From: Acidobacteriaceae bacterium
GTDB taxonomy: Bacteria > Acidobacteriota > Terriglobia > Terriglobales > Acidobacteriaceae
Direction of reading: 5' to 3'
Length of the DNA stretch: 40,427 bases
Assembly (NCBI GenBank): GCA_003131315.1
Contig: PKUV01000115.1
Span: forward strand, 5,690-46,116
A model generated the notes under the pieces. It was not told the DNA's origin, searched no databases, and saw only the letters and a list, made by a program, of their open reading frames with translations. Positions 28,711 through 40,427 of this stretch are shown piece after piece; position 1 is the stretch's first letter, and each line of letters opens with the position of its first letter. The translations under genes were made by a program, and so were the position numbers.

Positions 28711-31362
28711 TTGTCATTTTTGGACGAGTTAAATCCGCAACAACGCGAGGCGGTCGAGACTACCGAGGGGCCGGTGCTTATCCTGGCCGGGGCGGGCAGC
28801 GGGAAGACTCGCGTCATTACGTTTCGGATTGCCTATCTGATCGAGAAGATGGGCGTGATGCCGGAATCGATTCTGGCCGTTACTTTTACCAACAAGGCTT
28901 CGTCGGAGATGGCCGAGCGCGTGGAAAAGCTTGTCGGCGGGCTCAGCATTGCCAAGCCGGTGATTTCCACGTTTCACTCGTTTTGCGTGCGGGTGCTGCG
29001 GCGGGACATTGAGGCTTTGCGGATTCCCTCTACCGTGCCCGGACAGCCGTCGATCGGGCTCACGAAAAATTTCGTCATCTACGACGAGAGCGATCAGCAG
29101 CAGGTGGTCAAGGGCATCATCCGGCGACTGGGGCTGGACGACAAGCAATTGACGCCGCGCAACGTGCTTTCGCGGATTTCCTGGGCCAAGAATCACATGC
29201 TCGATCCGCAGGAAATCTACCTGCAATCGGGGGACCCGAAGACTGAAAAGATCGCGCACATTTTCGAGGAGTACCGCAAGGAACTGCGCAAGGCGAATGC
29301 GATGGACTTCGACGATCTGTTGCTCGAAGCCATGCGCCTGCTCAAGTCGGTGGCGGCGGTGCGCGAATACTACAACCGGCGATTCCAGTACCTTTTGGTG
29401 GATGAATACCAGGACACGAACCGTCCGCAGTACGAACTGATGCGGTTGCTGGCGGGCGACGGGCACAACGTCTGCGCGGTGGGCGATGAAGATCAGTCGA
29501 TCTACTCGTGGCGTGGGGCGGACATTCGGAACATTCTGGAGTTTGAGCGCGACTTTCCGGAAGCGAAAATCGTGCGGCTGGAGCAGAACTACCGCTCGAC
29601 GCAAAACATTCTGGAGGCGGCGTCGACGGTGGTGGCGAACAACGTCCGGCGCAAGGGCAAGAATTTGTGGACGGCACGGCAGGGTGGGGCGAAGATCGGC
29701 TACTACGAGGCTCCGGACGGCGAGAACGAGGCGCTGTTTGCGGCCGATACGATCAACCGCTACGTGCGGCAGGCAGGCGAGAACGGCGAAACGGCGCGAG
29801 CGGCCGTGCTCTACCGGACGAACTCGCAATCGCGATTGTTCGAAGAGGCAATGCGCCGCTATCAGTTGAAGTATCACGTGGTCGGCGGCTTCTCGTTCTA
29901 CGAGCGGGCTGAGATCAAGGACTTGACCTCGTACTTGAAGGTCATCCAGAACCCGGATGATTCGGTTTCACTGCTGCGCGTGATCAACACACCAGTGCGC
30001 GGGATCGGCAAGACGACGATTGAGATGATAGAGCGGCTCGCGCTCGAAACGGGATTGTCGATGTGGGGCGCGGTTGGCGAAGCAATTACGCGGCAGTTGT
30101 TGCCGGCGCGGGCGTTGGCCGCGTTGAAGAGCTTCCGCGAGCTGATTGAGGACGGGCGCGCGATGCTGGCGGGGACGTATGGGGAGCGGGTGGAGGAGAC
30201 GGCTGGGGCGAAGACGGGCGGCGATGCGGGGGACACTGCCGAGCTGCGCTCGGCTGGGACGGGCGGGACGCCCGTCCCCACAAAACCCGGCGCCAACACC
30301 GATTTCGATCCTGGCAACTTTAGCTTTGATTTTGCCGCCAGCGATTCTGCGGGTGAGGACGTCGCTCCCTCCACTGATGATGCGGCCGATGAGGCGGTCG
30401 AGGGTTTCCGGACTCCGGGCGCGGCGGCGAATACCGCCGAGATTCTCAAATTCCTGATCGACCGCACTGGATACATCAAGCAACTGGAAGACGAGGACAC
30501 GCCGGAGTCTTACTCACGCATCGAGAACCTGCGCGAACTGGTGAATGCGGCCATGGACTCGCGCGATCGCGGGGAGACGCTCGATCAGTTTCTCGATCAC
30601 GCCGCCCTGGTTAGCGATGCCGACCAGTACGACGAGCACGCGCAGATCACGCTGATGACTCTGCACGCGGCCAAGGGGCTGGAGTTCCCTCTGGTGGTTC
30701 TTGCCGGAATGGAGGAAGGCCTGTTTCCGCATTCGCGCACCATGCTCGAGCCCGATTCGATCGAAGAAGAACGGCGGCTCTGCTACGTCGGCATGACGCG
30801 CGCCATGGACACGCTGATTTTGTCGCGAGCCGTGTATCGGCGGCGGTATGGGACTGATATGCCCGAGGCTAGCGTGCCGTCGCGGTTCCTGGAAGAGGTT
30901 CCGCCGCAGTTGGTGGAAGAGATGGGCGGATCGCGGGCGAGTCGCCCGCGGCCACACGATCGTGTGGGGACGGGCGCCCTCGCCCGTCCAGCGGGGCGAA
31001 GCCCCGCAGCCGCCGAAAGCACACACTACTCCTACGAAGACGAAGACCAGAGCGCCACCTGGAACCCGGCGCGGGTCAAGCCGAAAACGGCAACTCCGCT
31101 CGGGAACTACAACTCGATCGACAACATTGCCGAGTTTTTTACCTCGCGCGGCAAGAAGTTCAATGTTCCGAAAATGCCGTCCGAAGAGCCCAAAGGCAGG
31201 CGGGGATTCCGTCCCGGGCAGAAGGTGAAGCACCCGAAATATGGGGAAGGGACGGTGTATCGGCGCGAAGGGGATGGGGAAGACGCCAAGATTACGGTAC
31301 AATTTCCTCGCTTCGGTTTGAAAAAGCTGGTGGAGCGGTACGCCCAGCTGGAGCAAGCTTAG
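28711..31362 (+). CDS. pcrA: UvrD/PcrA superfamily 1A DNA helicase
   Basis: 883 aa from TTG 28711, with GGAG (28697-28700) ten nt upstream; earlier in-frame starts would overlap the divergent zinc-ribbon gene. SF1A motifs: LNPQQREAV (Q motif), AGAGSGKT (26-33), FTNKASSEMAERV, LLVDEYQDTN (about 230), GDEDQSIYSWRGAD, QNYRST, and near 660 THAAKGLEF-type LMTLHAAKGLEFPLVVLAGM. The C-terminus FRPGQKVKHPKYGEGTVYRR is the PcrA Tudor-like domain that contacts RNA polymerase. A 3'-5' helicase for repair and fork maintenance. It is longer than the usual 720-750 aa because of two linkers: about 490-575 in domain 2B and about 735-770 before the Tudor domain, each carrying REP palindromes in frame. Confidence 0.95.
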   Translation: MSFLDELNPQQREAVETTEGPVLILAGAGSGKTRVITFRIAYLIEKMGVMPESILAVTFTNKASSEMAERVEKLVGGLSIAKPVISTFHSFCVRVLRRDIEALRIPSTVPGQPSIGLTKNFVIYDESDQQQVVKGIIRRLGLDDKQLTPRNVLSRISWAKNHMLDPQEIYLQSGDPKTEKIAHIFEEYRKELRKANAMDFDDLLLEAMRLLKSVAAVREYYNRRFQYLLVDEYQDTNRPQYELMRLLAGDGHNVCAVGDEDQSIYSWRGADIRNILEFERDFPEAKIVRLEQNYRSTQNILEAASTVVANNVRRKGKNLWTARQGGAKIGYYEAPDGENEALFAADTINRYVRQAGENGETARAAVLYRTNSQSRLFEEAMRRYQLKYHVVGGFSFYERAEIKDLTSYLKVIQNPDDSVSLLRVINTPVRGIGKTTIEMIERLALETGLSMWGAVGEAITRQLLPARALAALKSFRELIEDGRAMLAGTYGERVEETAGAKTGGDAGDTAELRSAGTGGTPVPTKPGANTDFDPGNFSFDFAASDSAGEDVAPSTDDAADEAVEGFRTPGAAANTAEILKFLIDRTGYIKQLEDEDTPESYSRIENLRELVNAAMDSRDRGETLDQFLDHAALVSDADQYDEHAQITLMTLHAAKGLEFPLVVLAGMEEGLFPHSRTMLEPDSIEEERRLCYVGMTRAMDTLILSRAVYRRRYGTDMPEASVPSRFLEEVPPQLVEEMGGSRASRPRPHDRVGTGALARPAGRSPAAAESTHYSYEDEDQSATWNPARVKPKTATPLGNYNSIDNIAEFFTSRGKKFNVPKMPSEEPKGRRGFRPGQKVKHPKYGEGTVYRREGDGEDAKITVQFPRFGLKKLVERYAQLEQA
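30256..30278. repeat. REP-like hairpin in frame inside pcrA, domain 2B insert
   Basis: GGGACGGGCG (30256-30265), loop GGA, CGCCCGTCCC (30269-30278): perfect ten-base arms. It encodes AGTGGTPVPT in a Gly/Ala/Asp-rich insert of about 85 residues lacking in ordinary PcrA. Confidence 0.85.
30932..31007. repeat. Cluster of four palindromes in frame inside pcrA, pre-Tudor linker
   Basis: Consecutive perfect palindromes: CGCGGGCG/CGCCCGCG (30932-30950), CCACACGATCGTGTGG (30952-30967), GGACGGGCG/CGCCCGTCC (30968-30989) and GCGGGGC/GCCCCGC (30991-31007). The third and fourth correspond to the two hairpins at 13-54. Together they encode a basic linker (SRASRPRPHDRVGTGALARP...) with no stop codon. Confidence 0.88.
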
Positions 31363-31432
31363 AGCTGCGGGCCGCGGGCTTCGAGTTTTGAGATACGCAC
31401 CAAGAATTTCAGAGAGGATTTAAAACGCACTG

Positions 31433-31594
31433 ATGGCAAACACAAAGACGCTCACCAAAGACGAACGTAAGAAGACCAAGCGAGCCGCCCGCAAGAAGAT
31501 CAAAGCGGAAAAGCCGAAGAAGCCCCGCGATTACGCGCGCGGATCGAAGAAGCGCAAGGTGAAAAAGCTGGCACGCGGTCAGGCGAAACGGTAA
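31433..31594 (+). CDS. Small Lys/Arg-rich protein, 53 aa
   Basis: An ORF of 53 codons starting ATG 31433 and ending TAA 31592-31594. By my count about 17 Lys and 8 Arg (nearly half basic) with only four acidic residues. It begins MANTKTLTKDERKKTKRAAR and ends KKRKVKKLARGQAKR. No domain recognised; composition suggests a nucleic-acid or ribosome-binding small protein. The purine-rich AGAGAGGA (31411-31418) is about 14 nt upstream, long for a ribosome binding site. It sits 70 nt after pcrA in the same direction and is followed by a strong hairpin (31622-31649), so it may form a short transcript or the tail of the pcrA operon. Confidence 0.6.
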   Translation: MANTKTLTKDERKKTKRAARKKIKAEKPKKPRDYARGSKKRKVKKLARGQAKR

Positions 31595-31621
31595 GCCGTT
31601 AGCCTGAACTGTGAGCATTTA

Positions 31622-31649
31622 CGGGCATGGGCCAGCGCGCCCATGCCCG
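31622..31649. terminator. Strong hairpin after the 53-aa gene
   Basis: CGGGCATGGGC (31622-31632) pairs with GCCCATGCCCG (31639-31649), 11 perfect pairs, loop CAGCGC. There is no T tract, so it may be a REP-like transcript-stabilising hairpin instead of a true intrinsic terminator. Confidence 0.6.
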
Positions 31650-31677
31650 ACTCCCGCTGTGAGGAGACAACGAACTC

Positions 31678-33261
31678 TTGTCGCAATCATCCCCTGAGCC
31701 AGCAGCCGGCGTCGTCCGCACTTCTAACAGCCAGCTTCTCTGTTGCAAGTCCATCGACAAACTGATCTCGGAGTCGGAGAACCCGGAAACCCGGCTCAGC
31801 AAAACGCTCGGCCCGTGGTCGCTTACAGCGCTCGGCATCGGCGCCATCATCGGTTCGGGAATCTTCGTGCTTACGGGAACGGCAGCGGCCGGAGAATATT
31901 TCCAGGCGCCTTCCCTCCTGCATGCGCAGGCGCTCGATCTGATTGTGAATTTCCTGCGCACCGGCAGCACGGCCGGAGCGCTCATGCATGGCCGTCCGCC
32001 CGCCGGGCCTTCGATTGCAATTTCGTTTTTGCTGGTGGCGATCGCCTGCAGTTTTGCCGGATTGTGCTACGCCGAGTTGGCGTCGATGATCCCCATTGCG
32101 GGCAGCGCCTACACCTACTCGTACGCGACGCTCGGCGAAATCTTTGCCTGGATCATCGGCTGGGACCTGATTCTCGAATATGTGGTCAGCAACGTGGCGG
32201 TGGCGGTTGGCTTCGCCGGTTATACGAAGGCGCAATTCGCGGCGTTTGGTGTCATCTTGCCGGACAAATGGGCGAGCCCCGTCTGGGCCTCGGGACAGTG
32301 GACGGGCGCTTACTTCAATCTTCCCGGCTTCCTGATCGTTTTCATTCTCACACTGCTGCTGGTGCGCGGAGTGAAGGAATCGGCCGAGACCAACAACATC
32401 ATGGTCGCCATTAAGATCGGCGCGATCCTGACCTTCCTGGTTGTCGGTGGAATGCTGGTGAAGCCCGCGAACTGGACGCCCTTCGCACCTTCTGGCTTTG
32501 CGGGGATCGTGACGGGCGGGGCGATCGTTTTCTTTACCTACATCGGATTCGATTCGGTCTCGACCGCCGCCGAGGAATCCCGCAATCCGCAAAAAGACTT
32601 GCCCTTCGGCATTATCATGTCGCTGATTGTCTGTACTTTGCTGTACGTCGGTGTCGCTTTGGTGCTGCTCGGCATGATGAAGTACACGACCTTCGTTTCC
32701 GGTGAAGCCGCCGAAGCGCCCGTCGCCTACGCGATGAAGTATCTGGGAGTGCACCCGCTCTTCCGGTCTGTGATTGTGATTGGAGCGCTGACGGGGATGA
32801 TCTCTTCGTTGCTTGTGTTTCAGTACGGGCAGGCGCGGATCTGGTACGCCATGTCTCGCGACGGCTTGTTGCCGAAGTTGTTCTCGGCAGTGCATCCGAA
32901 GTATAAGACACCGCACTGGTCCACTTGGATCGCCTGTTTTGCGGTGGGAATCCCCGCCGGGCTCGTGGATATTGGGGATGCGGCCGACCTCGCTAACATT
33001 GGGACGCTGTTTGCCTTCGTGCTGGTTTCGTTGGGGGTCATCTTTCTTCGACGCAGGCAGCCCGATCGCAAGCGTGCGTTCCGCGTGCCCTTTGTGCCGT
33101 GGTTCCCGCTGATCTCAGTGGTTCTGTGCGGCGGACTGATGTTCGGGCTGACGCTCATTACCTGGCTGCGCTTTGTGATCTGGCTGGCGCTGGGGCTGGT
33201 GATCTACATCTTCTACAGCCGCCACCATAGCGAGTTCTGCAAAGAGAAAAAAAACGGGTGA
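31678..33261 (+). CDS. APC-family amino-acid permease (cationic amino-acid transporter type)
   Basis: 527 aa, 12 or more hydrophobic helices. The N-terminal signature TLGPWSLTALGIGAIIGSGI followed by FVLTG is the conserved helix 1 motif of the CAT/YfnA group, and SFLLVAIACSFAGLCYAELA and GFDSVSTAAEESRNPQKDLP are also diagnostic. It imports amino acids, probably by proton symport, across the inner membrane. The start is TTG 31678, with GAGGAG (31661-31666) 11 nt upstream; no ATG lies close enough to be an alternative. An extended loop between helices 1 and 2 (about 65-110) is typical of this subgroup. A 25-bp hairpin follows the stop. Confidence 0.9.
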   Translation: MSQSSPEPAAGVVRTSNSQLLCCKSIDKLISESENPETRLSKTLGPWSLTALGIGAIIGSGIFVLTGTAAAGEYFQAPSLLHAQALDLIVNFLRTGSTAGALMHGRPPAGPSIAISFLLVAIACSFAGLCYAELASMIPIAGSAYTYSYATLGEIFAWIIGWDLILEYVVSNVAVAVGFAGYTKAQFAAFGVILPDKWASPVWASGQWTGAYFNLPGFLIVFILTLLLVRGVKESAETNNIMVAIKIGAILTFLVVGGMLVKPANWTPFAPSGFAGIVTGGAIVFFTYIGFDSVSTAAEESRNPQKDLPFGIIMSLIVCTLLYVGVALVLLGMMKYTTFVSGEAAEAPVAYAMKYLGVHPLFRSVIVIGALTGMISSLLVFQYGQARIWYAMSRDGLLPKLFSAVHPKYKTPHWSTWIACFAVGIPAGLVDIGDAADLANIGTLFAFVLVSLGVIFLRRRQPDRKRAFRVPFVPWFPLISVVLCGGLMFGLTLITWLRFVIWLALGLVIYIFYSRHHSEFCKEKKNG

Positions 33262-33264
33262 TCG

Positions 33265-33331
33265 GGTGATCGGGCCATCGGGTGATCTGGATTCTGATTT
33301 TGAACTCAGATCACCCGATGGCCCGATCACC
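33265..33331. repeat. Perfect 25-bp hairpin built of GATCGGG words
   Basis: The left arm 33265-33289 (begins GGTGATCGGGCCATCGGG) pairs perfectly with the right arm 33307-33331 around a 17-nt loop containing GATTTTGA. Further GATCGGG/CCCGATC words flank it (33256-33264, 33333-33360). It follows the permease stop by three nt and could terminate or stabilise the transcript. Confidence 0.85.
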
Positions 33332-33375
33332 AGATGACCCGATCTTCACATCACCCGATCCTTTAGAATCGTTGC

Positions 33376-34386
33376 ATGCCTTCGGAGCCCTCCCGCTTCG
33401 TCCTCTCGCTCCCCAAGGCCGAGCTCCATCTGCATCTCGAAGGCTCAATCGAGCCATCCACGCTGCTGGAACTGCGTCGACGTCACGGGATGGGCGGGGC
33501 CTCGCTCGCCGAAGTCGACCAACTCTACAACTACAAAGACTTCACGGGTTTCCTCACGGCTTTCAAGGATGTGACGGGACACTTGCGCACTCCCGAAGAC
33601 TACGAGCTGATTACTTGCCGGCTGATGGAGCGCCTGAAATCGCAGAACGTTCTGCATGCGGAGGTTATAGTTTCGGCCGGCGTCTGCCTTTGGCGCAAAC
33701 AGGATTTCGCCGCGATTTTCGAGGGGCTAGAACGTGGCCGCGAGCGCGGCGAGAAAGACTTCGGCATTTCGCTGTTGTGGATATTCGATGCCGTCCGGCA
33801 GTTCGGCGCCGACAAAGCGCAGAGCGTGCTTGATCTCGCCATCCATTTTCGCGAGCGCAACGTGGTTGGCTTCGGCATTGGCGGCGACGAGCGCGCGGGC
33901 CCGCCGGAGTGGTTCACGGCGGTTTACGCTCGCGCCGCGGAGCACGGTCTTCATCTCACGGCTCACGCCGGTGAAAAAGCCGGGCCGGAGTCCATCTGGG
34001 GCGCGCTGAACCTCAAAGCGGAACGCATCGGCCACGGCCTTACCGCCGGGCAGGATCCGGAATTGATCGAAGAGTTGGCCGGGAGCCAGGTTCCGATTGA
34101 AATCTGCGTGACCAGCAATCTGCGGACGGGCTGCTGCACCGAACTCGCGCAACATCCGGTGCGCCGCTACTTCGACCAGGGCCTGATGCTGACCCTCAAC
34201 ACCGACGATCCCGCCATGTTTCGTACCTCGCTGGTCGAAGAGTACTGTCTGGTTCAGGAGACGTTCGGCTTCACCGACGAACACCTGCGAGAATTGGCGC
34301 GCAATTCCTTCGAGGCGTCCTTCCTGCCGCCAGAAAAGAAAATAGAATTTCTGAATCTGTTTGACTCCGCGGCCCTGCGGTCGTGA
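33376..34386 (+). CDS. add: Adenosine deaminase family enzyme
   Basis: 336 aa. All metal and catalytic motifs are visible: KAELHLHLEGS (zinc His18 and His20), LTAHAGEKAGP (zinc His and catalytic Glu), RIGHGLTA (catalytic His) and TLNTDDPAMF (zinc Asp). These enzymes deaminate adenosine to inosine; related members act on 6-amino-6-deoxyfutalosine or adenine, so the exact purine substrate is uncertain, and the symbol is used in the family sense. Cytosolic, single gene. It is preceded by the GATCGGG repeat hairpin and followed by word-like TTCGC repeats. Confidence 0.9.
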   Translation: MPSEPSRFVLSLPKAELHLHLEGSIEPSTLLELRRRHGMGGASLAEVDQLYNYKDFTGFLTAFKDVTGHLRTPEDYELITCRLMERLKSQNVLHAEVIVSAGVCLWRKQDFAAIFEGLERGRERGEKDFGISLLWIFDAVRQFGADKAQSVLDLAIHFRERNVVGFGIGGDERAGPPEWFTAVYARAAEHGLHLTAHAGEKAGPESIWGALNLKAERIGHGLTAGQDPELIEELAGSQVPIEICVTSNLRTGCCTELAQHPVRRYFDQGLMLTLNTDDPAMFRTSLVEEYCLVQETFGFTDEHLRELARNSFEASFLPPEKKIEFLNLFDSAALRS

Positions 34387-34389
34387 GGC

Positions 34390-34440
34390 GCGTCGTTCGC
34401 TGGTCGCTGTTCGCTATTCGTCGTTCGCTCTTCGCTTCCC
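34390..34440. repeat. Word-like TTCGCT repeats before the carboxyltransferase gene
   Basis: TTCGCT recurs several times with changes (GTTCGCTGGTCGCTGTTCGC and on), ending near 34437. Non-coding; same class as 21555-21620. Confidence 0.6.
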
Positions 34441-34482
34441 AAAAGCCGAGAGCCGATCAGCGAAACGCGATCCTCCCTCGCC

Positions 34483-34488
34483 TATAAT
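34483..34488 (+). promoter_or_regulatory. -10 box TATAAT for the carboxyltransferase gene (leaderless)
   Basis: A perfect TATAAT ends eight nt before ATG 34497, so transcription should start one or two bases before the ATG. No ribosome binding site is present. No good -35 is visible at 16-18 nt. Confidence 0.65.
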
Positions 34489-34496
34489 GTCTGCCT

Positions 34497-36047
<1,551 letters not shown>

Positions 36048-36095
36048 ATAGCTCTCAGCTCTCAGCCGTCAGTAGAAGCGACTTGACCGGAGCGA

Positions 36096-36112
36096 CTGGG
36101 GTACCCCCCACC
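36096..36112 (+). repeat. 17-bp direct repeat, left copy
   Basis: CTGGGGTACCCCCCACC. It recurs as CTGGGGTACCCGCCACC at 38688-38704 (one mismatch, same orientation), so the two copies flank the XRE/ImmA operon. Confidence 0.65.
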
Positions 36113-36123
36113 CCCCCCTATTT

Positions 36124-36264
36124 TATTAAAATCCTCATTTTAAAGGAGTTAATGCAAAATATTCATAACAAAGGAGTTACCGGCCTCTTTTTCGGACTTA
36201 GTCTTTAGAATCAAGGAGTTGGACTTACTAAGTCGCGCAAAATATAGATTTCAAAGAACTTACG
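36124..36264 (+). repeat. A+T-rich degenerate unit repeated four times
   Basis: Units of about 28 nt with the pattern AAAAT-N8-9-AAAGGAGTTA occur at 36124-36151 and 36153-36180, and in weaker form at 36200-36222 and 36236-36264 (ending AAAGAACTTAC). Each looks like an A-rich box followed by an SD-like AAGGAGTT, but no proper gene follows; an 18-codon frame from ATG 36152 is the only candidate. Confidence 0.6.
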
Positions 36265-36321
36265 TAGAAATCGGCGCGGCCGCACTGGACTGCAACCTAA
36301 GTTCTATTATAGCTCTTATTG

Positions 36322-36747
36322 TCAAGCGTCTTGGCGTTCCAATTCGTCAAATACTTCGTCTGCCGGGCGGCCTGCGCCTTTTCGAGCTTGCGCAAGGCCG
36401 CGGCGAATGCTCGCCACTACCTCGAAGCGGACTTTTTCTTTGCGCTGAAGATACTCGACAATTTCGAACAGGTTGCGGGCCTGCGGGTTGCCGGAGGGGC
36501 TCAGCATCCGCATCAGGCTCTTGGCAGAGTGGTGCGTGGCTTCTGCGAGTTTGGCAAAACCGATGGTGGCGTTAATGTAATCGCGCAGCACAGCCTTGCC
36601 GGTTTCGATGTCTCCAAGGACAAAGCATTCGACACTTTCGCGCAAAAGTTCCTTGCGGAACGCAGCGTCGCGCTTTACGCGGGCTTGTATGGTTTCTTTG
36701 AAACTGCGGGTTAAGGGCATGGGTAGTGTCGGTTTGGAGTAGATCAT
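36322..36747 (-). CDS. Small HTH protein, addiction-module antidote (HigA/HI1420)-like
   Basis: 141 aa. Residues about 55-110 (LRDYINATIGFAKLAEATHH, SAKSLMRMLSPSGNPQARNL) follow the helix-turn-helix of HigA-like probable addiction module antidotes (GFxxLAxxTGxxxxSLxRxLSxxGNP). The C-terminal tail GAGRPADEVFDELERQDA is acidic. It is the third gene of the operon: its ATG overlaps the stop of the XRE/ImmA gene (ATGA at 36744-36747). No toxin follows; its stop meets the A+T-rich repeat region, so it may regulate the operon or act as antidote for an upstream gene product. Confidence 0.72.
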   Translation of the reverse strand: MIYSKPTLPMPLTRSFKETIQARVKRDAAFRKELLRESVECFVLGDIETGKAVLRDYINATIGFAKLAEATHHSAKSLMRMLSPSGNPQARNLFEIVEYLQRKEKVRFEVVASIRRGLAQARKGAGRPADEVFDELERQDA

Positions 36748-37883
36748 CGGGGGAAGGGAATTGGCTCGACTTTATTGGGGCTGGAGGGCGAAACGACAAC
36801 TCCAGTAATTTCCTTGAACGTGTCAGCATTGAAGTGAAGTTGCTTGCACAACGCCTCAACTGTCAATTCGATTCTAGTTCCCAGCGAGTTCAGTGCCGTG
36901 GCAAGGACCTCTGGTTCTTGGAAAGAGGGTTCCTCGGGTTCACCATGAGTGGGCCATCCTTTCCAAGCCATGTGCTTACACGCCTTTCGATATTCAACGG
37001 CTCCGAGCAGCCCTAGCTCGTATGCCCGTCTGACAATGGCCGATGCGCTAGCACGCCAACGTCGCTTTAGCGCGAAAATATGCGGCCACGAGAAAGATGC
37101 GACTCGAAAATCACGGGCGAATGCTTTGCGCGGCAACAAGAACGCACTAGCGAATCTATTGGCCGCCATTTCGGTCTCTACACTTCCGGTGTGGATGCCG
37201 GGATGCATCACGAGATGCCCGCATTCGTGGGCGATGTCAAAATTCCAGCGCGATGTGCTCCGAATAGTCTGATTCAAGAAGATAATAGCCGTTGGGCCGC
37301 AACGCGAGAAAGCGTCCACCTTTTTTGATTCAGCCAGATGAGGCACAACGATCACGCCAGCATGTTCCATGGCGCGGCAAATCTGCATGAGTGGACTATC
37401 AAGAGAGAGCTTCCAATGCGTGCGGCATTGTTCGGCGGCGGCTTCGATTTCTTCAGCGCTGGAAACCGAAGCTGGTATATGTGGAATGTCTTGAGCAGGG
37501 AAACGAAACAGTAATTTTAGTTGGGCAATTACCATGCCGATCAGCGTTGCATGTGCTCGAATCTTGTTCTTCGTCCGCTCAGGAGTGGAGCGTCTATGCC
37601 TAAAGCTGCATTGTTCCTCGCGGAACACGTCTTCGATTTCACCATAAAAGAACTCAGGCTCGAATCCGAGGACGGAGCCGAACGCTTCAACGAGATCGCG
37701 AGAGGGATTCTTCTTGCCTGCTTCGCACAAAGACACCAATGCAGTGGAGGCCGATACCGCTTCACTAACTTCCTTCTGTGTCAGACCTTTAAATTCTCGC
37801 GCAACCTGTAGTCGCTCTCCCCAAAAAACATCCCGTGCTCGTGCTTCCCAAAGTGATCCGCTATACGCCAGCGTTTCGGTCAT
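36744..37883 (-). CDS. XRE-family regulator fused to ImmA/IrrE metallopeptidase
   Basis: 379 aa. An N-terminal XRE helix-turn-helix (about 23-77: RLQVAREFKGLTQKEVSEAV, then SASTALVSLCEAGKKNPSRD) is joined to an ImmA/IrrE domain with the zinc motif H219-E-C-G-H223 (FDIAHECGHLVMHPG) and the following MAANRFASAFLLPRKAF. ImmA relatives cleave phage repressors or regulators (ICEBs1 ImmR, Deinococcus DdrO) on stress, so this is a predicted protease-regulator. It is translationally coupled on both sides (ATGA overlaps at 37880-37883 and 36744-36747). Codon use is more A+T-rich than in housekeeping neighbours. Confidence 0.9.
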   Translation of the reverse strand: MTETLAYSGSLWEARARDVFWGERLQVAREFKGLTQKEVSEAVSASTALVSLCEAGKKNPSRDLVEAFGSVLGFEPEFFYGEIEDVFREEQCSFRHRRSTPERTKNKIRAHATLIGMVIAQLKLLFRFPAQDIPHIPASVSSAEEIEAAAEQCRTHWKLSLDSPLMQICRAMEHAGVIVVPHLAESKKVDAFSRCGPTAIIFLNQTIRSTSRWNFDIAHECGHLVMHPGIHTGSVETEMAANRFASAFLLPRKAFARDFRVASFSWPHIFALKRRWRASASAIVRRAYELGLLGAVEYRKACKHMAWKGWPTHGEPEEPSFQEPEVLATALNSLGTRIELTVEALCKQLHFNADTFKEITGVVVSPSSPNKVEPIPFPR

Positions 37884-38497
37884 TGCGTCTTCTTTTTCTT
37901 CTCTTTCTTCTTGTCTTGCTGTTCTTCTTCGGTTTCCAGCGGCTCAAGTTCAACAGGCGCTAGATCAACTGGCTTGGTTTCGATAGGAACAACATTGCTG
38001 GGGGCGGTGCCAAATGGGACGAGATGGACGCCGACTGCTTCCCCTGCTTCATCCAATTCCACAAGTTTGACAGTGGATACCTGACCTTCACGATCTGTCT
38101 CAATGGCAAGCCTCAGAATCTTGTCTAACGGGCGCAGTCCCTCGAATAGTTGACGCTGTTGTAATTCCCCGTAGGTTGTAATGAGATAGTTGTCTGGGGG
38201 ATCATCGGGGGCCCCCTTATAAAACCTGATTGGAATGCCGTCAATTGCGAAGGTGAAACGAAGTTTGGGCGCTTCTGCCACAAGACTCAACCAGAGTTGC
38301 TTCTTTGACAGTTCCCTTATCGTGAAACACGACCGTACATAAACCCGGCAACCGTGAGACCATTCATTGTCCCCGTTGAGTGGGTCGTACAGAGCCAACG
38401 TGTTCTTGCGCACGTCACGCAGAGCGCTAGCAATTACCGATAGACGCTCATCTGTCAGGGATGGATACTTATCGTAAGGCTTAAAATCGTCGTCCAT
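37880..38497 (-). CDS. Unknown 205-aa protein, first gene of the XRE/ImmA operon
   Basis: 205 aa, no family recognised. An alpha/beta N-terminal part (about 1-150) contains GCRVYVRSCFTIRELSKKQL and FAIDGIPIRFYKGAPDDPPD then NYL. A tail rich in Pro, Glu and Val (APVELEPLETEEEQQDKKK) ends in a Lys run. No signal peptide, membrane helix or catalytic motif. It is the first gene and overlaps the XRE/ImmA gene by ATGA. The promoter TTGCGC-N17-TATACT ends seven nt before its ATG, with no ribosome binding site. It may be a substrate or partner of the ImmA protease; that is inference from coupling only. Confidence 0.7.
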   Translation of the reverse strand: MDDDFKPYDKYPSLTDERLSVIASALRDVRKNTLALYDPLNGDNEWSHGCRVYVRSCFTIRELSKKQLWLSLVAEAPKLRFTFAIDGIPIRFYKGAPDDPPDNYLITTYGELQQRQLFEGLRPLDKILRLAIETDREGQVSTVKLVELDEAGEAVGVHLVPFGTAPSNVVPIETKPVDLAPVELEPLETEEEQQDKKKEKKKKTQ

Positions 38498-38504
38498 GCG
38501 AATG

Positions 38505-38533
38505 AGTATACACAGGACTAGATATTAGCGCAA
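38505..38533 (-). promoter_or_regulatory. Promoter of the XRE/ImmA operon (leaderless)
   Basis: On the minus strand, TTGCGC (38528-38533) and TATACT (38505-38510) are spaced by 17 nt. The -10 ends seven nt before ATG 38497, so the start site falls at or next to the ATG. The operator array lies directly upstream of the -35. Confidence 0.65.
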
Positions 38534-38537
38534 GGAA

Positions 38538-38610
38538 ATTTACGGCTTTGTAAATCTTTACTGGGTGATTAAATATTTACACGGTGCGAAATTATTTACA
38601 TGGCTGTAAA
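38538..38610. promoter_or_regulatory. Iteron-like operator array, four TTTAC units
   Basis: TTTAC occurs at 38539, 38557, 38576 and 38595, spacings 18, 19 and 19 bp. The outer two units are full inverted repeats: ATTTAC-GGCTTT-GTAAAT (38538-38555) and TTTACA-TGGC-TGTAAA (38595-38610). The array sits just upstream of the -35 of the XRE/ImmA operon, so it is the likely binding site of that operon's XRE or HTH protein. Confidence 0.7.
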
Positions 38611-38639
38611 GAATTAACCATCTGTTTCCTGACCGCAAG

Positions 38640-38680
38640 TCCCACTCATTCGCAAAAGCGCGAATGGGTGCGGCACCCCG
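38640..38680 (-). repeat. Intergenic hairpin repeat (GGGTGCCCC family), copy C
   Basis: On the minus strand it reads GGGGTGCCGCACCCATTCGC with arms ATTCGC/GCGAAT and loop GCTTTT, ending GAGTGGGAC. It is diverged but recognisable against copies at 15113-15153 and 15341-15382. It sits between the stop of the 109-aa gene and the operator array. Confidence 0.65.
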
Positions 38681-38687
38681 AGGTTAG

Positions 38688-38704
38688 CTGGGGTACCCGC
38701 CACC
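38688..38704 (+). repeat. 17-bp direct repeat, right copy
   Basis: CTGGGGTACCCGCCACC, matching 36096-36112 with one mismatch, same orientation. It lies two nt from the stop of the 109-aa gene. Confidence 0.65.
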
Positions 38705-38705
38705 T

Positions 38706-39035
38706 TCAAAGCTCTTTCAGAAACTTCTCCAATTCCTTAAGCCCGTCGTAAACCTTCCTCGCTGAAGTTGTGAATCTAACATCGCTCCGCCCGTAGGTGG
38801 TGGCGAGGTATCGACGCAACTGATTGAACCCCAATTCAACGACACGGCCCGTTTCGATGAACGCCACGTTGCTTTCATTGAGATTGTTAGCTTGGCAGAA
38901 CGTTCCCCGCGATAAAGGAGTACCGTTCGAAGACTTGAATCTTCTTTCCCGATGAGACTCCAAGAGATTTCCGAGCGTACTCAGCAACAGTTCACGGGTT
39001 TGCTTTACCACCTTCTTGTCGTTGCCCTTAGCCAT
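38706..39035 (-). CDS. XRE-like DNA-binding protein, 109 aa
   Basis: 109 aa. LSRGTFCQANNLNESNVAFI followed by ETGRVVELGF is an XRE-type helix-turn-helix with the typical IETGR ending of helix 3-4. The rest, QLRRYLATTYGRSDVRFTTS and a helical KVYDGLKELEKFLKEL, completes the fold. A basic N-terminus (MAKGNDKKVVKQTRELLL) precedes. Second gene of a two-gene operon: its ribosome binding site GAGGAGG overlaps the stop region of the 58-aa gene. It probably represses its own or the neighbouring operon. Confidence 0.7.
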   Translation of the reverse strand: MAKGNDKKVVKQTRELLLSTLGNLLESHRERRFKSSNGTPLSRGTFCQANNLNESNVAFIETGRVVELGFNQLRRYLATTYGRSDVRFTTSARKVYDGLKELEKFLKEL

Positions 39036-39047
39036 GTACGGCCTCCT

Positions 39048-39224
39048 CTATTTGGGGACGCTGAAAATGGCGATTCGCTTATCGCCAATATTGATAGTCT
39101 CAAGCAACGTGCCTACAAAAATTCGCTTATCCCCTTTTAGGACTGCAAGCCTCCATCCCTTGCCCTTCGTCATCCTGTCACCGCGCTTAGCTTTCTTGCC
39201 CATGATCTGAATCTGATCTGCCAT
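39048..39224 (-). CDS. Small basic protein, 58 aa
   Basis: 58 codons from ATG 39224 to TAG at 39048-39050. It begins MADQIQIMGKKAKRGDRMTK and ends IAIFSVPK; the motif GDKRI occurs twice (GDKRIFVG and GDKRIAIF), suggesting a small beta-rich fold. A very good ribosome binding site GGAGGAA lies about seven nt upstream, so it is almost certainly translated. It ends 12 nt before the XRE-like gene and is cotranscribed with it. A -10-like TAAAAT (complement of 39244-39249) with TTGGCG 15 nt further upstream is a possible promoter. No family recognised. Confidence 0.65.
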   Translation of the reverse strand: MADQIQIMGKKAKRGDRMTKGKGWRLAVLKGDKRIFVGTLLETINIGDKRIAIFSVPK

Positions 39225-39302
39225 TGAGTGTTCCTCCGCGAAGATTTTATTGGGGACCGAACTACGCCAAGGGGAAGGCCGGAATTATCTCACAGACAGT
39301 CG

Positions 39303-39308
39303 TATAAT
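39303..39308 (+). promoter_or_regulatory. -10 box TATAAT in the divergent spacer
   Basis: A perfect TATAAT facing the Gp37/Gp68 gene, giving a leader of about 80 nt with a hairpin GCCCGC/GCGGGC near 39320-39340. No strong -35 seen. Confidence 0.5.
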
Positions 39309-39396
39309 CGGCGGGAAAATGCCCGCTGGCAGGCGGGCTTCGCTGAAACTATCGGCGTACAAATCCTATGGTAATAAATCTTTCTGGGGCTAGACC

Positions 39397-40212
39397 TTGT
39401 CACTGAACTCCCACATCGAATGGACCGACGCAACATGGAACCCCGTCCGGGGCTGCGTCAAGATTAGTCCTGGGTGCAAGCATTGCTATGCCGAGACGTT
39501 TGCGGAGCGGTTTCGCGGGGTTAAGGGGCATCCTTATGAACAGGGGTTTGATCTGCGGCTGGTGCCGGAGAAGCTGACGGAGCCTTTTGGATGGCGGTCT
39601 CCCAAGTTGGTGTTCGTGAATTCGATGAGCGATCTGTTTCAGACGGGAGTGCCGGATGAGTATGCGGAGGCCGTCTCGCGGGTGATGGCTACGGCGAATT
39701 GGCACACCTATCAGGTGCTGACGAAGAGGTCGGAGAGGCTGCTGCAGTTGCTCAAGGGCAGGTTGCGTTTTGCGGCGGAGCAGGAAAATATCTGGTGGGG
39801 CGTCAGCGTTGAGGATCGGAAACATGGTTTGCCCCGAGTGGATCATCTTCGACAGGCGCCTGCGAAAGTCCGATTCCTATCCATCGAGCCGTTGCTGGAA
39901 GACCTCGGCGAAATCAACCTGTCAGGCATTACCTGGGCGATTGTCGGCGGCGAGAGCGGGCCGGGGGCACGTCCGATGAAGCGGGAGTGGGTGGTCTCCA
40001 TTCGGAAGCAGTGCCGGATGCAAGGCGTGCCCTTCTTCTTTAAGCAATGGGGCGGGGTGCGAAAAGCTAAGAACGGCAGATTGCTCGATGGGCGGACTTA
40101 TGATGAGTATCCGGAGCGCGTTCTTAGAGCTGTGCCGGAGAGAGCGGAGTGCCTTGCTTGGGCTGAGGAGTTCGGGAAAGGCTTTCAGGATTGGGCGCTG
40201 GCAGTGGGGTGA
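39397..40212 (+). CDS. Phage Gp37/Gp68 family (DUF5131) protein
   Basis: 271 aa from TTG 39397. IEWTDATWNPVRGCVKISPG followed by CKHCYAE gives the cysteine cluster GCxxxxxGCxxCYA, which resembles an iron-sulfur site of radical-SAM-like proteins. FVNSMSDLF, YQVLTKRSERL, WWGVSVEDR, IEPLLEDLG and VGGESGPGARPM are the other DUF5131 motifs. It is found in phages and bacteria, often beside a three-Cys-motif partner gene (TcmP), which is not visible here but could lie to the right. Its function is unproved. The start codon TTG has GGGG about nine nt upstream. Confidence 0.85.
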   Translation: MSLNSHIEWTDATWNPVRGCVKISPGCKHCYAETFAERFRGVKGHPYEQGFDLRLVPEKLTEPFGWRSPKLVFVNSMSDLFQTGVPDEYAEAVSRVMATANWHTYQVLTKRSERLLQLLKGRLRFAAEQENIWWGVSVEDRKHGLPRVDHLRQAPAKVRFLSIEPLLEDLGEINLSGITWAIVGGESGPGARPMKREWVVSIRKQCRMQGVPFFFKQWGGVRKAKNGRLLDGRTYDEYPERVLRAVPERAECLAWAEEFGKGFQDWALAVG

Positions 40213-40364
40213 TGCTGACTGCGTCGCGAATTATCGAGCTTTGCTGGATTTCGCGGAAACTGTCGTCCGGAGTACACCAGAGAAGGTTACGGTAGCCGAG
40301 AAAAGGCGGAACCACAGGGGACACAGAGGAACACAGGGGAAACCCTAGGCGCGAGGAAGTGCGG
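40213..40364. other. Intergenic spacer with word-like repeats
   Basis: Includes CACAGGGGACACAGAGGAAC followed by ACAGGGG, ACAGAGG-type words (40311-40341). No gene recognised. Confidence 0.5.
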
Positions 40365-40427
40365 TCAAAACGTAGAGAGTCCCGAGGTGATGTTGAACTC
40401 ATTCTTCTCGGCCAGTAGCTCGCGTTT
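40365..40427 (-). CDS. Possible C-terminal end of a gene continuing beyond the window
   Basis: An open minus-strand frame enters from the right edge and ends with TGA (40365-40367). It would give KRELLAEKNEFNITSGLSTF as the last 20 residues. That is protein-like and has no internal stop, but is too short to identify. Confidence 0.4.
   Translation of the reverse strand, partial: KRELLAEKNEFNITSGLSTF

What the first reader, a model, noticed from the sequence alone, without database searches (positions are those of the whole stretch)
36096..38704. Three-gene XRE-ImmA/IrrE islet flanked by 17-bp direct repeats
A 205-aa unknown protein, an XRE+ImmA/IrrE metallopeptidase and a HigA-like HTH protein are encoded with ATGA overlaps at both junctions, so they are translated as one unit. 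The block is A+T-richer than its surroundings, lies between two same-orientation 17-bp repeats with one mismatch, and has its own operator array. ImmA-type proteases normally cleave a partner repressor. Here a second HTH protein (third gene) and a novel first protein are locked to the protease, which looks like a self-contained stress- or phage-responsive module. I know of no described system with this exact gene set. Coordinates and overlaps are seen in sequence; the function is inference.
Basis: partly seen in the sequence, partly recalled or inferred. Interest (0 to 1): 0.75.

Follow-up and report, generated by a model that had tools for sequence, protein, structure and literature searches.

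The report
Known RosmerTA pair plus stray antitoxin
Two of the three genes are a member of a known bacterial toxin-antitoxin family used against phages (RosmerTA); the third is a stray, apparently hybrid antitoxin gene lying next to it, and the flanking repeats are better explained by dispersed DNA than by an insertion.

Summary
The three ORFs, both ATGA strings, the A+T-rich block, the 16/17 repeat and an operator-like array are in the sequence. Genes 1 and 2 are a RosmerTA toxin-antitoxin pair: the 205-aa protein is RmrT (PADLOC E=1.6e-18), the 379-aa XRE-M78 protein is RmrA (E=1.5e-70). RmrA directly follows RmrT in 13 of 53 genome loci and 8 of 11 plasmid/phage-record loci; the other RmrT relatives are orphans. 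Gene 3 belongs to an HI1420-like antitoxin family: 14 of 29 loci of relatives have an HI1419-type toxin directly upstream, none has RmrA, and no RmrT-family locus has gene 3. 26 of 28 aligned relatives have Met in the place of its residue 10, so the second ATGA is probably not the start. Its last 30 residues match a Phd-type antitoxin tail; one relative carries such an antitoxin at this same site, so it looks like a hybrid orphan antitoxin. The left 17-bp copy lies in a dispersed repeat, the right one beside another. Likely mechanism: RmrA represses and neutralises RmrT; infection frees RmrT, which stops the cell. New member of a known kind.

The parts
37880..38497 (-). rmrT: 205-aa RosmerTA toxin (PADLOC PDLC03929; PHROG 5786)
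   Evidence: 39 of 39 members of alignment A3, window included, match the same PADLOC model
36744..37883 (-). rmrA: 379-aa XRE HTH + ImmA/IrrE (Peptidase_M78) antitoxin; HECGH zinc motif intact
   Evidence: HExxH present in 21 of 21 relatives examined
36322..36747 (-). third gene: 141-aa orphan HI1420-like antitoxin with a Phd/YefM-like C-terminal tail; probable true start at 36720 (Met10)
38539..38554 (.). palindrome TTTACGGCTTTGTAAA, candidate RmrA operator
   Evidence: the GTAAA half is kept at the same distance from the ATG in L047, the other arm is not
38595..38610 (.). palindrome TTTACATGGCTGTAAA, candidate RmrA operator
   Evidence: GTAAA half kept at the same distance in L047 with a degenerate other arm
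38505..38533 (-). candidate promoter TTGCGC-17-TATACT, ending 7 nt before the ATG
   Evidence: kept as TTGCAC-17-TATAGT in L047 (read by eye); the consensus scan found no promoter in the region
36054..36266 (+). dispersed intergenic repeat containing the left 17-bp copy and the AAAGGAGTTA-type repeats
   Evidence: 11 further matches in the genome, best 86% over 206 bp
38641..38703 (.). dispersed palindromic repeat (common part about 38641-38680) next to the right 17-bp copy
   Evidence: 15 further matches in the genome; one (C109) covers the whole stretch at 84%
38706..39035 (-). 109-aa ORF, weak HTH_31 match below cut-off; neighbour, probably not part of RosmerTA
   Evidence: found in 1 of 199 phylum genomes, the window's own
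34497..36047 (+). acyl-CoA carboxyltransferase gene, left neighbour of the interval
39397..40212 (+). DUF5131 gene, right neighbour; the stretch that precedes it in five relatives is replaced here

Best explanation
Genes 1 and 2 form a RosmerTA toxin-antitoxin module. RmrA (XRE + ImmA/IrrE metallopeptidase) binds palindromic TTTAC-N6-GTAAA sites upstream of rmrT to repress the operon, and neutralises RmrT by binding or by cleavage. When infection or another stress upsets RmrA, RmrT stops growth of the infected cell and so limits phage spread. Gene 3 is a separate orphan antitoxin: an HI1420-like DNA-binding part joined to a Phd/YefM-type toxin-binding tail, lying downstream without its own toxin. 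Shown here: family membership, gene order, intact protease motif, excess of silent over protein-changing differences, and lack of linkage of gene 3. Inferred: repression, neutralisation, trigger, the target of RmrT, and any activity of gene 3.
For: PADLOC RmrT E=1.6e-18 and RmrA E=1.5e-70; RmrA directly after RmrT in 13 of 53 genome loci and 8 of 11 plasmid/phage-record loci (two of these eight carry the same RmrA accession); HExxH in 21 of 21 RmrA; few protein changes against L047 (RmrT pN 0.18, pS 0.79; RmrA residues 1-262 pN 0.10, pS 0.72; silent sites near saturation); operator half-sites and promoter-like box kept in L047. RosmerTA is described as a phage-defence TA with RmrA as antitoxin (PMC10440598, passages), and pneumococcal RipAB as a Rosmer TA whose toxin acts on DnaN (PMC12795458: outline, passages and sections 8 and 12). 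Gene 3: HI1419-type toxin directly upstream in 14 of 29 loci of relatives (12 long hits, four of which built the model, and 2 partial); RmrA in none; its tail matches Phd-type antitoxin tails in 4 other genomes of 247 and a Phd-like antitoxin beside the same carboxyltransferase gene in L126.
Against: No toxicity or phage assay was possible. 40 of 53 RmrT-family loci show no RmrA (36 of them with at least 1.5 kb of downstream DNA), which is odd for a toxin, though the scan pattern came from six sequences, three of them Roseomonas or Azospirillum among the five relatives, and is no census. RmrT has no fold match (best E 0.015-0.019 with TM about 0.2), so its action is unknown. S. thermophilus RosmerTA homologues protected poorly against most phages tested (PMC12322248, passages). 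The consensus promoter scan found nothing.
Confidence: 0.82

Rival explanations
1. A true three-component module: gene 3 is a functional third partner of RmrTA, for example a second repressor or a substrate of the RmrA protease.
For: Same strand, 23 nt (or a 4-nt overlap) after rmrA; gene 3's family part is conserved (dN/dS 0.13 against L008, silent sites near saturation); it carries a toxin-binding-like tail.
Against: No gene 3 in 53 genome loci or 11 plasmid/phage-record loci of the RmrT family; in the closest, L047, only 160 bp remain after rmrA, but the start of gene 3 would fall there. Its relatives keep company with HI1419-type toxins.
Confidence: 0.1
2. A mobile islet inserted between 17-bp target repeats.
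For: 16/17 direct repeat flanking the block; two of only four exact TGGGGTACCC in the genome; block A+T-richer; RmrT absent from relatives sampled; 14 of 15 copies of the right-hand dispersed repeat end before the right 17-bp copy.
Against: The left copy belongs to a dispersed repeat whose C153 copy has the same motif; one paralogue of the right-hand repeat aligns through the right copy; the A+T-rich stretch and the enlarged interval extend beyond the right repeat; the three proteins and the 109-aa ORF match no integrase or transposase (other ORFs were not scanned).
Confidence: 0.08
3. RmrT is no toxin but a clamp- or DNA-associated regulator, and RmrA its transcriptional controller.
For: 40 of 53 loci carry RmrT-family genes without RmrA, up to four in one genome; 22 of 26 aligned orphan proteins have a QLxL motif in the tail.
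Against: The window's protein matches the PADLOC toxin model and lies in the toxin-first order beside RmrA (PMC10440598).
Confidence: 0.1

Closest known systems
RosmerTA (RmrT-RmrA): Millman et al. 2022 (known only from citations and memory; not read) and Ernits et al. 2023 (PMC10440598, passages read)
   Same: XRE + ImmA/IrrE antitoxin next to a small toxin; toxin-first order; PADLOC RmrT and RmrA models both match
   Different: No hydrophobic membrane stretch is evident by eye in this RmrT (no membrane predictor was run), unlike the membrane-depolarising toxin of phage Kita; extra downstream orphan antitoxin
RipAB (Spr1630-Spr1629) of Streptococcus pneumoniae (PMC12795458)
   Same: Rosmer-family antitoxin: the window RmrA scores 139.8 bits, E=1.2e-40, with the NCBIfam spr1629 model
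   Different: Below that model's cut-off of 335 bits; similarity of the two toxins was not tested
HI1419/HI1420 (TIGR02683/TIGR02684) toxin-antitoxin
   Same: Relatives of gene 3 lie directly after a toxin of this type; the L003 toxin passes TIGR02683 (88.2 bits, cut-off 62.85)
   Different: Gene 3 itself scores only 12.9 bits (cut-off 53.7) with TIGR02684, has no toxin beside it, and ends in a Phd-type tail
ImmA/ImmR of ICEBs1 (as described in PMC10440598)
   Same: ImmA-type protease and HTH
   Different: HTH and protease are fused in one protein; no integrative element was seen here

Membership tests
RosmerTA | RmrA: N-terminal XRE HTH fused to ImmA/IrrE (M78) with HExxH | tested here: met
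   HTH_31 39.2 bits and Peptidase_M78 54 bits, both above cut-off; RmrA E=1.5e-70; HECGH in the window sequence
RosmerTA | RmrT toxin-family gene directly beside rmrA | tested here: met
   PADLOC RmrT E=1.6e-18 over residues 3-200; 4-nt overlap
RosmerTA | Gene pair conserved across distant genomes | tested here: met
   13 of 53 genome loci; 8 of 11 plasmid/phage-record loci; the rest are orphan RmrT
RosmerTA | Toxin toxic alone and neutralised by RmrA | not testable with these tools
   needs expression
RosmerTA | Anti-phage activity | not testable with these tools
   needs phage challenge
HI1419/HI1420 TA (gene 3) | Antitoxin reaches the curated HI1420 cut-off | tested here: not met
   Pfam PF21716 14.3 bits against 27; TIGR02684 12.9 against 53.7
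HI1419/HI1420 TA (gene 3) | HI1419-type toxin directly upstream | tested here: not met
   none in the window and none found in the genome (no positive control); present in 14 of 29 loci of relatives
Mobile islet with target-site duplication | Flanking repeats that arose on insertion | tested here: inconclusive
   left copy explained by a dispersed repeat; right copy lies beside one, with a single paralogue running through it; no empty site with clean ends was found
Beta-clamp binding toxin | QLxL-type clamp-binding motif (motif recalled, from no call) in the C-terminal tail | tested here: not met
   absent from the tail of the window's RmrT and from 12 of 13 TA-linked members (window included); present in 22 of 26 orphan members

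The most novel reading that the evidence does not exclude
The RmrT fold, which matches no solved structure, works at the DNA sliding clamp. An Acetobacteraceae branch has lost the antitoxin and kept a QLxL clamp-binding-like motif in an otherwise variable tail, while TA-linked members reach the clamp by the folded core or by their [VI][DE]LP-type tail. In the window this toxin operon has in addition been joined to a hybrid antitoxin, born where an HI1420-like gene met a Phd-ParE pair resident beside the carboxyltransferase gene, and now acting in trans on a ParE toxin elsewhere in the genome (contig C133).
Probability: 0.15. Interest if true: 0.6.

Novelty: new member of a known kind. Interest (0 to 1): 0.34.

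Why it matters
It settles an apparent new gene set as a known anti-phage toxin-antitoxin family and separates it from an unrelated neighbour. It leaves two testable points: a possible target for one RmrT branch (the sliding clamp, as shown for the pneumococcal Rosmer toxin), and a natural hybrid antitoxin whose DNA-binding and toxin-binding parts come from two different TA families.

Tried and rejected
Structure: AlphaFold2 of RmrT with 38 relatives gave mean pLDDT 78.3, pTM 0.69. Foldseek found nothing at E<=0.001 in PDB or BFVD; sequence searches of the PDB gave only chance-level hits (E 0.65 or worse). Weak fold hits to restriction and splicing endonucleases (E 0.17-0.68, TM 0.24-0.34) are too poor to support a nuclease reading. 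The pdb_via library was not available.

Viral contigs: 12 stretches matched a pattern, 0 confirmed. Rfam: 0 matches in 35900-40427. Shared neighbours in the 53 RmrT loci: besides RmrA, RmrT itself and frames overlapping them, the larger groups were ORFs in 6-8 loci (all orphans) that look like a type IV secretion cluster; the naming rests on L037, where SLT and VirB3 pass Pfam cut-offs. Literature: the search for three-gene or clamp-related RosmerTA listed 8 of 273 papers, none on the subject; the RosmerTA search listed 29 papers, several about plants, of which two were opened for passages; the RmrT search listed 20 of 36, all unrelated. So I cannot say that a three-gene or orphan form is unpublished.

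The QLxL count is not phylogenetically independent: the 26 orphans form 11 clusters at 80% core identity (10 with the motif), 3 at 70% (3) and 1 at 60%.

Rows dropped before counts: of 53 RmrT loci, 3 frames were skipped (a stop inside, a fused frame, too short) and 38 of the remaining 50 went into alignment A3 with the window. Four of the 40 orphans (L070, L079, L095, L098) have under 1.5 kb of downstream DNA. Of 14 plasmid/phage-record hits 11 were fetched; H2 and H9 (near-duplicates of H1 and H8) and H12 (42% of the query) were left out. Of 31 gene-3 matches outside the window's own, 29 came with loci (two weak ones did not), L023 and L031 overlap, and L029 gave no tblastn alignment.
Full report
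What is in the sequence. Three minus-strand ORFs lie at 37880-38497, 36744-37883 and 36322-36747, with ATGA at both junctions. The block has GC 0.48-0.55, against 0.56-0.65 at 30000-35750. A 17-bp repeat with one mismatch flanks it at 36096 and 38688. Upstream of gene 1 are two perfect palindromes TTTAC-N6-GTAAA at 38539-38554 and 38595-38610.

Genes 1 and 2. PADLOC names the 205-aa protein RmrT (E=1.6e-18, residues 3-200) and the 379-aa protein RmrA (E=1.5e-70; 14 RmrA models match). Pfam gives HTH_31 and Peptidase_M78 above cut-off in the second and nothing in the first. RmrT and RmrA are the two parts of RosmerTA: PMC10440598 (passages) describes RmrA as the ImmA-protease-domain antitoxin, the toxins as diverse and RosmerTA as phage defence, and reports that the member of Gordonia phage Kita is toxic, depolarises membranes and protects against two coliphages, with incomplete neutralisation by its antitoxin. 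The statement that no system with this gene set is known therefore fails for genes 1 and 2.

Linkage. A scan of the species-genome collection with a six-sequence alignment gave 53 RmrT-family loci (79 pattern matches). In 13 of 53 an RmrA relative follows directly; in 40 no RmrA was found in the fetched DNA, 36 of these having at least 1.5 kb downstream. The titles of the 40 are genera or families that I recall as Acetobacteraceae; this was not looked up, and since the pattern was drawn from few sequences the proportion is no census. Of 11 loci fetched from plasmid and phage records (of 14 hits), 8 have RmrA directly downstream (L043 and L044 the same protein) and 3, all Roseomonas or Pseudoroseomonas, do not. 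HExxH is present in 21 of 21 RmrA relatives. Taking the start nearest the match, rmrA overlaps the rmrT stop in 9 of 21 and begins 12-106 nt after the first base of the stop in 12; L047 and L039 have exactly the window's overlap. The nearest relative, L047 (a MAG titled Acidobacteriaceae), shares 71% of RmrT, 82% of RmrA residues 1-262 and 65% of 270-379 (an N-gap breaks its frame). Only 160 bp of its contig remain after rmrA; gene 3 does not begin there. In a phylum sample RmrT was found in 2 of 347 genomes: the window's own, and a weak 38-residue match (E=5e-4) inside an 843-aa frame.

Regulation. In L047 GTAAA half-sites lie at the same two distances (46 and 102 nt) before the start codon as in the window, though the opposite arms are degenerate; a TTGC[GA]C-17-TATA[CG]T box is kept, ending 7 nt before the ATG. 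The consensus scan found no promoter, so this candidate rests on two sequences.

Gene 3. Its family occurs in 28 of 347 phylum genomes, own included. In none of the 29 other loci does an RmrA or RmrT relative lie within the 1.5-kb flanks. A model built from four HI1419-type toxins hits directly upstream in 14 of 29 loci (12 long, of which four built the model; 2 partial), and weakly in L012; the L003 toxin passes the TIGR02683 cut-off. Gene 3 itself stays below the HI1420 cut-offs. No alignment of a relative reaches before residue 8, and 26 of 28 aligned loci have Met in the place of residue 10, so 36720 is the likelier start. Most relatives align only to about residue 110. The extra tail matches, in 4 of 247 phylum genomes besides its own (E 5.6e-5 to 8.1e-4), the C-terminus of antitoxins that precede a ParE-like toxin; the one pair tested passes TIGR01552 (Phd family, 22.7 bits, cut-off 20.8) and Pfam ParE_toxin (40.8 bits, cut-off 23), though NCBIfam named no family for that toxin.

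Origin of the tail. Rechecking the relatives of the carboxyltransferase gene showed two more pieces. In L126 a 93-aa Phd-like antitoxin (by eye), 50% identical to gene 3 over residues 108-139, lies beside the carboxyltransferase gene and convergent with it, as gene 3 does in the window; a ParE-like C-terminal remnant (by eye) follows it. In L158 (same place as L145) an HI1420-like gene 71% identical to gene 3 over residues 10-110 lies about 1.1 kb past the carboxyltransferase gene, on its strand, with no toxin seen by eye. So both halves of gene 3 have relatives at this chromosomal site, which fits a hybrid made there. The genome holds a ParE toxin (50.7 bits) behind a Phd-like antitoxin on contig C133; no HI1419-type toxin was found (no positive control).

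Repeats and site. The left repeat copy is part of a ~210-bp element with 11 further matches in the genome, the best 86% over 206 bp with the same CTGGGGTACCCC. The AAAGGAGTTA repeats between gene 3 and the carboxyltransferase gene belong to it. The right copy lies just past a ~40-bp palindrome with 15 further matches; only the C109 copy aligns through the 17-bp stretch, and it differs at the motif. In 5 of 26 relative loci the carboxyltransferase gene is followed after 0.73, 0.92, 0.92, 0.93 and 1.23 kb by the same DUF5131 gene; most of the 26 hold only about 1.5 kb past the gene, so the other 21 are not all true absences. The gap of L138 encodes TcmP (TIGR04474, 121.8 bits); the other gaps were not scanned. 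Here the gap is 3.35 kb and holds RosmerTA, gene 3 and two small ORFs. The same-genus genome G369 has other genes in the 3.3 kb up to its contig end. So the interval exchanges genes, and its ends are probably not the 17-bp repeats, but no clean empty site was found.

How it may work. By analogy with RosmerTA the pair is an antitoxin-repressed toxin freed on infection (inferred). The target of this RmrT is unknown: its model has two long helices and six strands, with no fold match. Two facts point to the sliding clamp. The pneumococcal Rosmer toxin RipA is suppressed by changes in the protein-binding pocket of DnaN (PMC12795458, sections 8 and 12). And 22 of 26 orphan RmrT relatives carry QLxL, a clamp-binding motif as I recall it, at one alignment column in an otherwise variable tail (1000 shuffles: mean 0.94, maximum 5; reversed motif 0). 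Against it: only 1 of 13 TA-linked members, and not the window's, has the motif in the tail; the orphans are related to each other; and a QLxL in the folded core is common in both groups (23 of 26 and 9 of 13). I hold the clamp reading at about 15%.

Verdict. A new member of RosmerTA with a stray, probably hybrid antitoxin behind it. Useful, not very surprising. That the genome is an acidobacterium is inferred only from the title of L047.

Noticed in passing
L052-L099 (the 40 of 53 loci without RmrA): Family of orphan RmrT-like proteins, up to four in one genome, with no antitoxin found; 22 of 26 aligned carry QLxL at one column of the tail.
   Followed up: partly
window 39397-40212; L129, L136, L138, L141, L155: The DUF5131 gene here lacks the stretch that precedes it in five relatives; in L138 that stretch encodes TcmP, and in L155 the gap holds two separate frames.
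   Followed up: partly
L126 869-1150; L158 2922-3248: Beside the same carboxyltransferase gene, one relative has a Phd-like antitoxin and another an HI1420-like antitoxin, each resembling one half of gene 3.
   Followed up: partly
window 38706-39035 and 39048-39224: Two small minus-strand ORFs (109 and 58 aa); the first is found only in the window's own genome of 199 searched.
   Followed up: partly
window 36054-36266 and 38641-38703: Two dispersed intergenic repeat families of this genome with 12 and 16 matches, own included.
   Followed up: partly
L156 1218-1532 (contig C133 of the window's genome): A ParE toxin behind a Phd-like antitoxin whose tail resembles that of gene 3 by eye.
   Followed up: partly
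window 40427: The window ends at the end of its contig (46116), so the far side of the DUF5131 gene cannot be read.
   Followed up: yes
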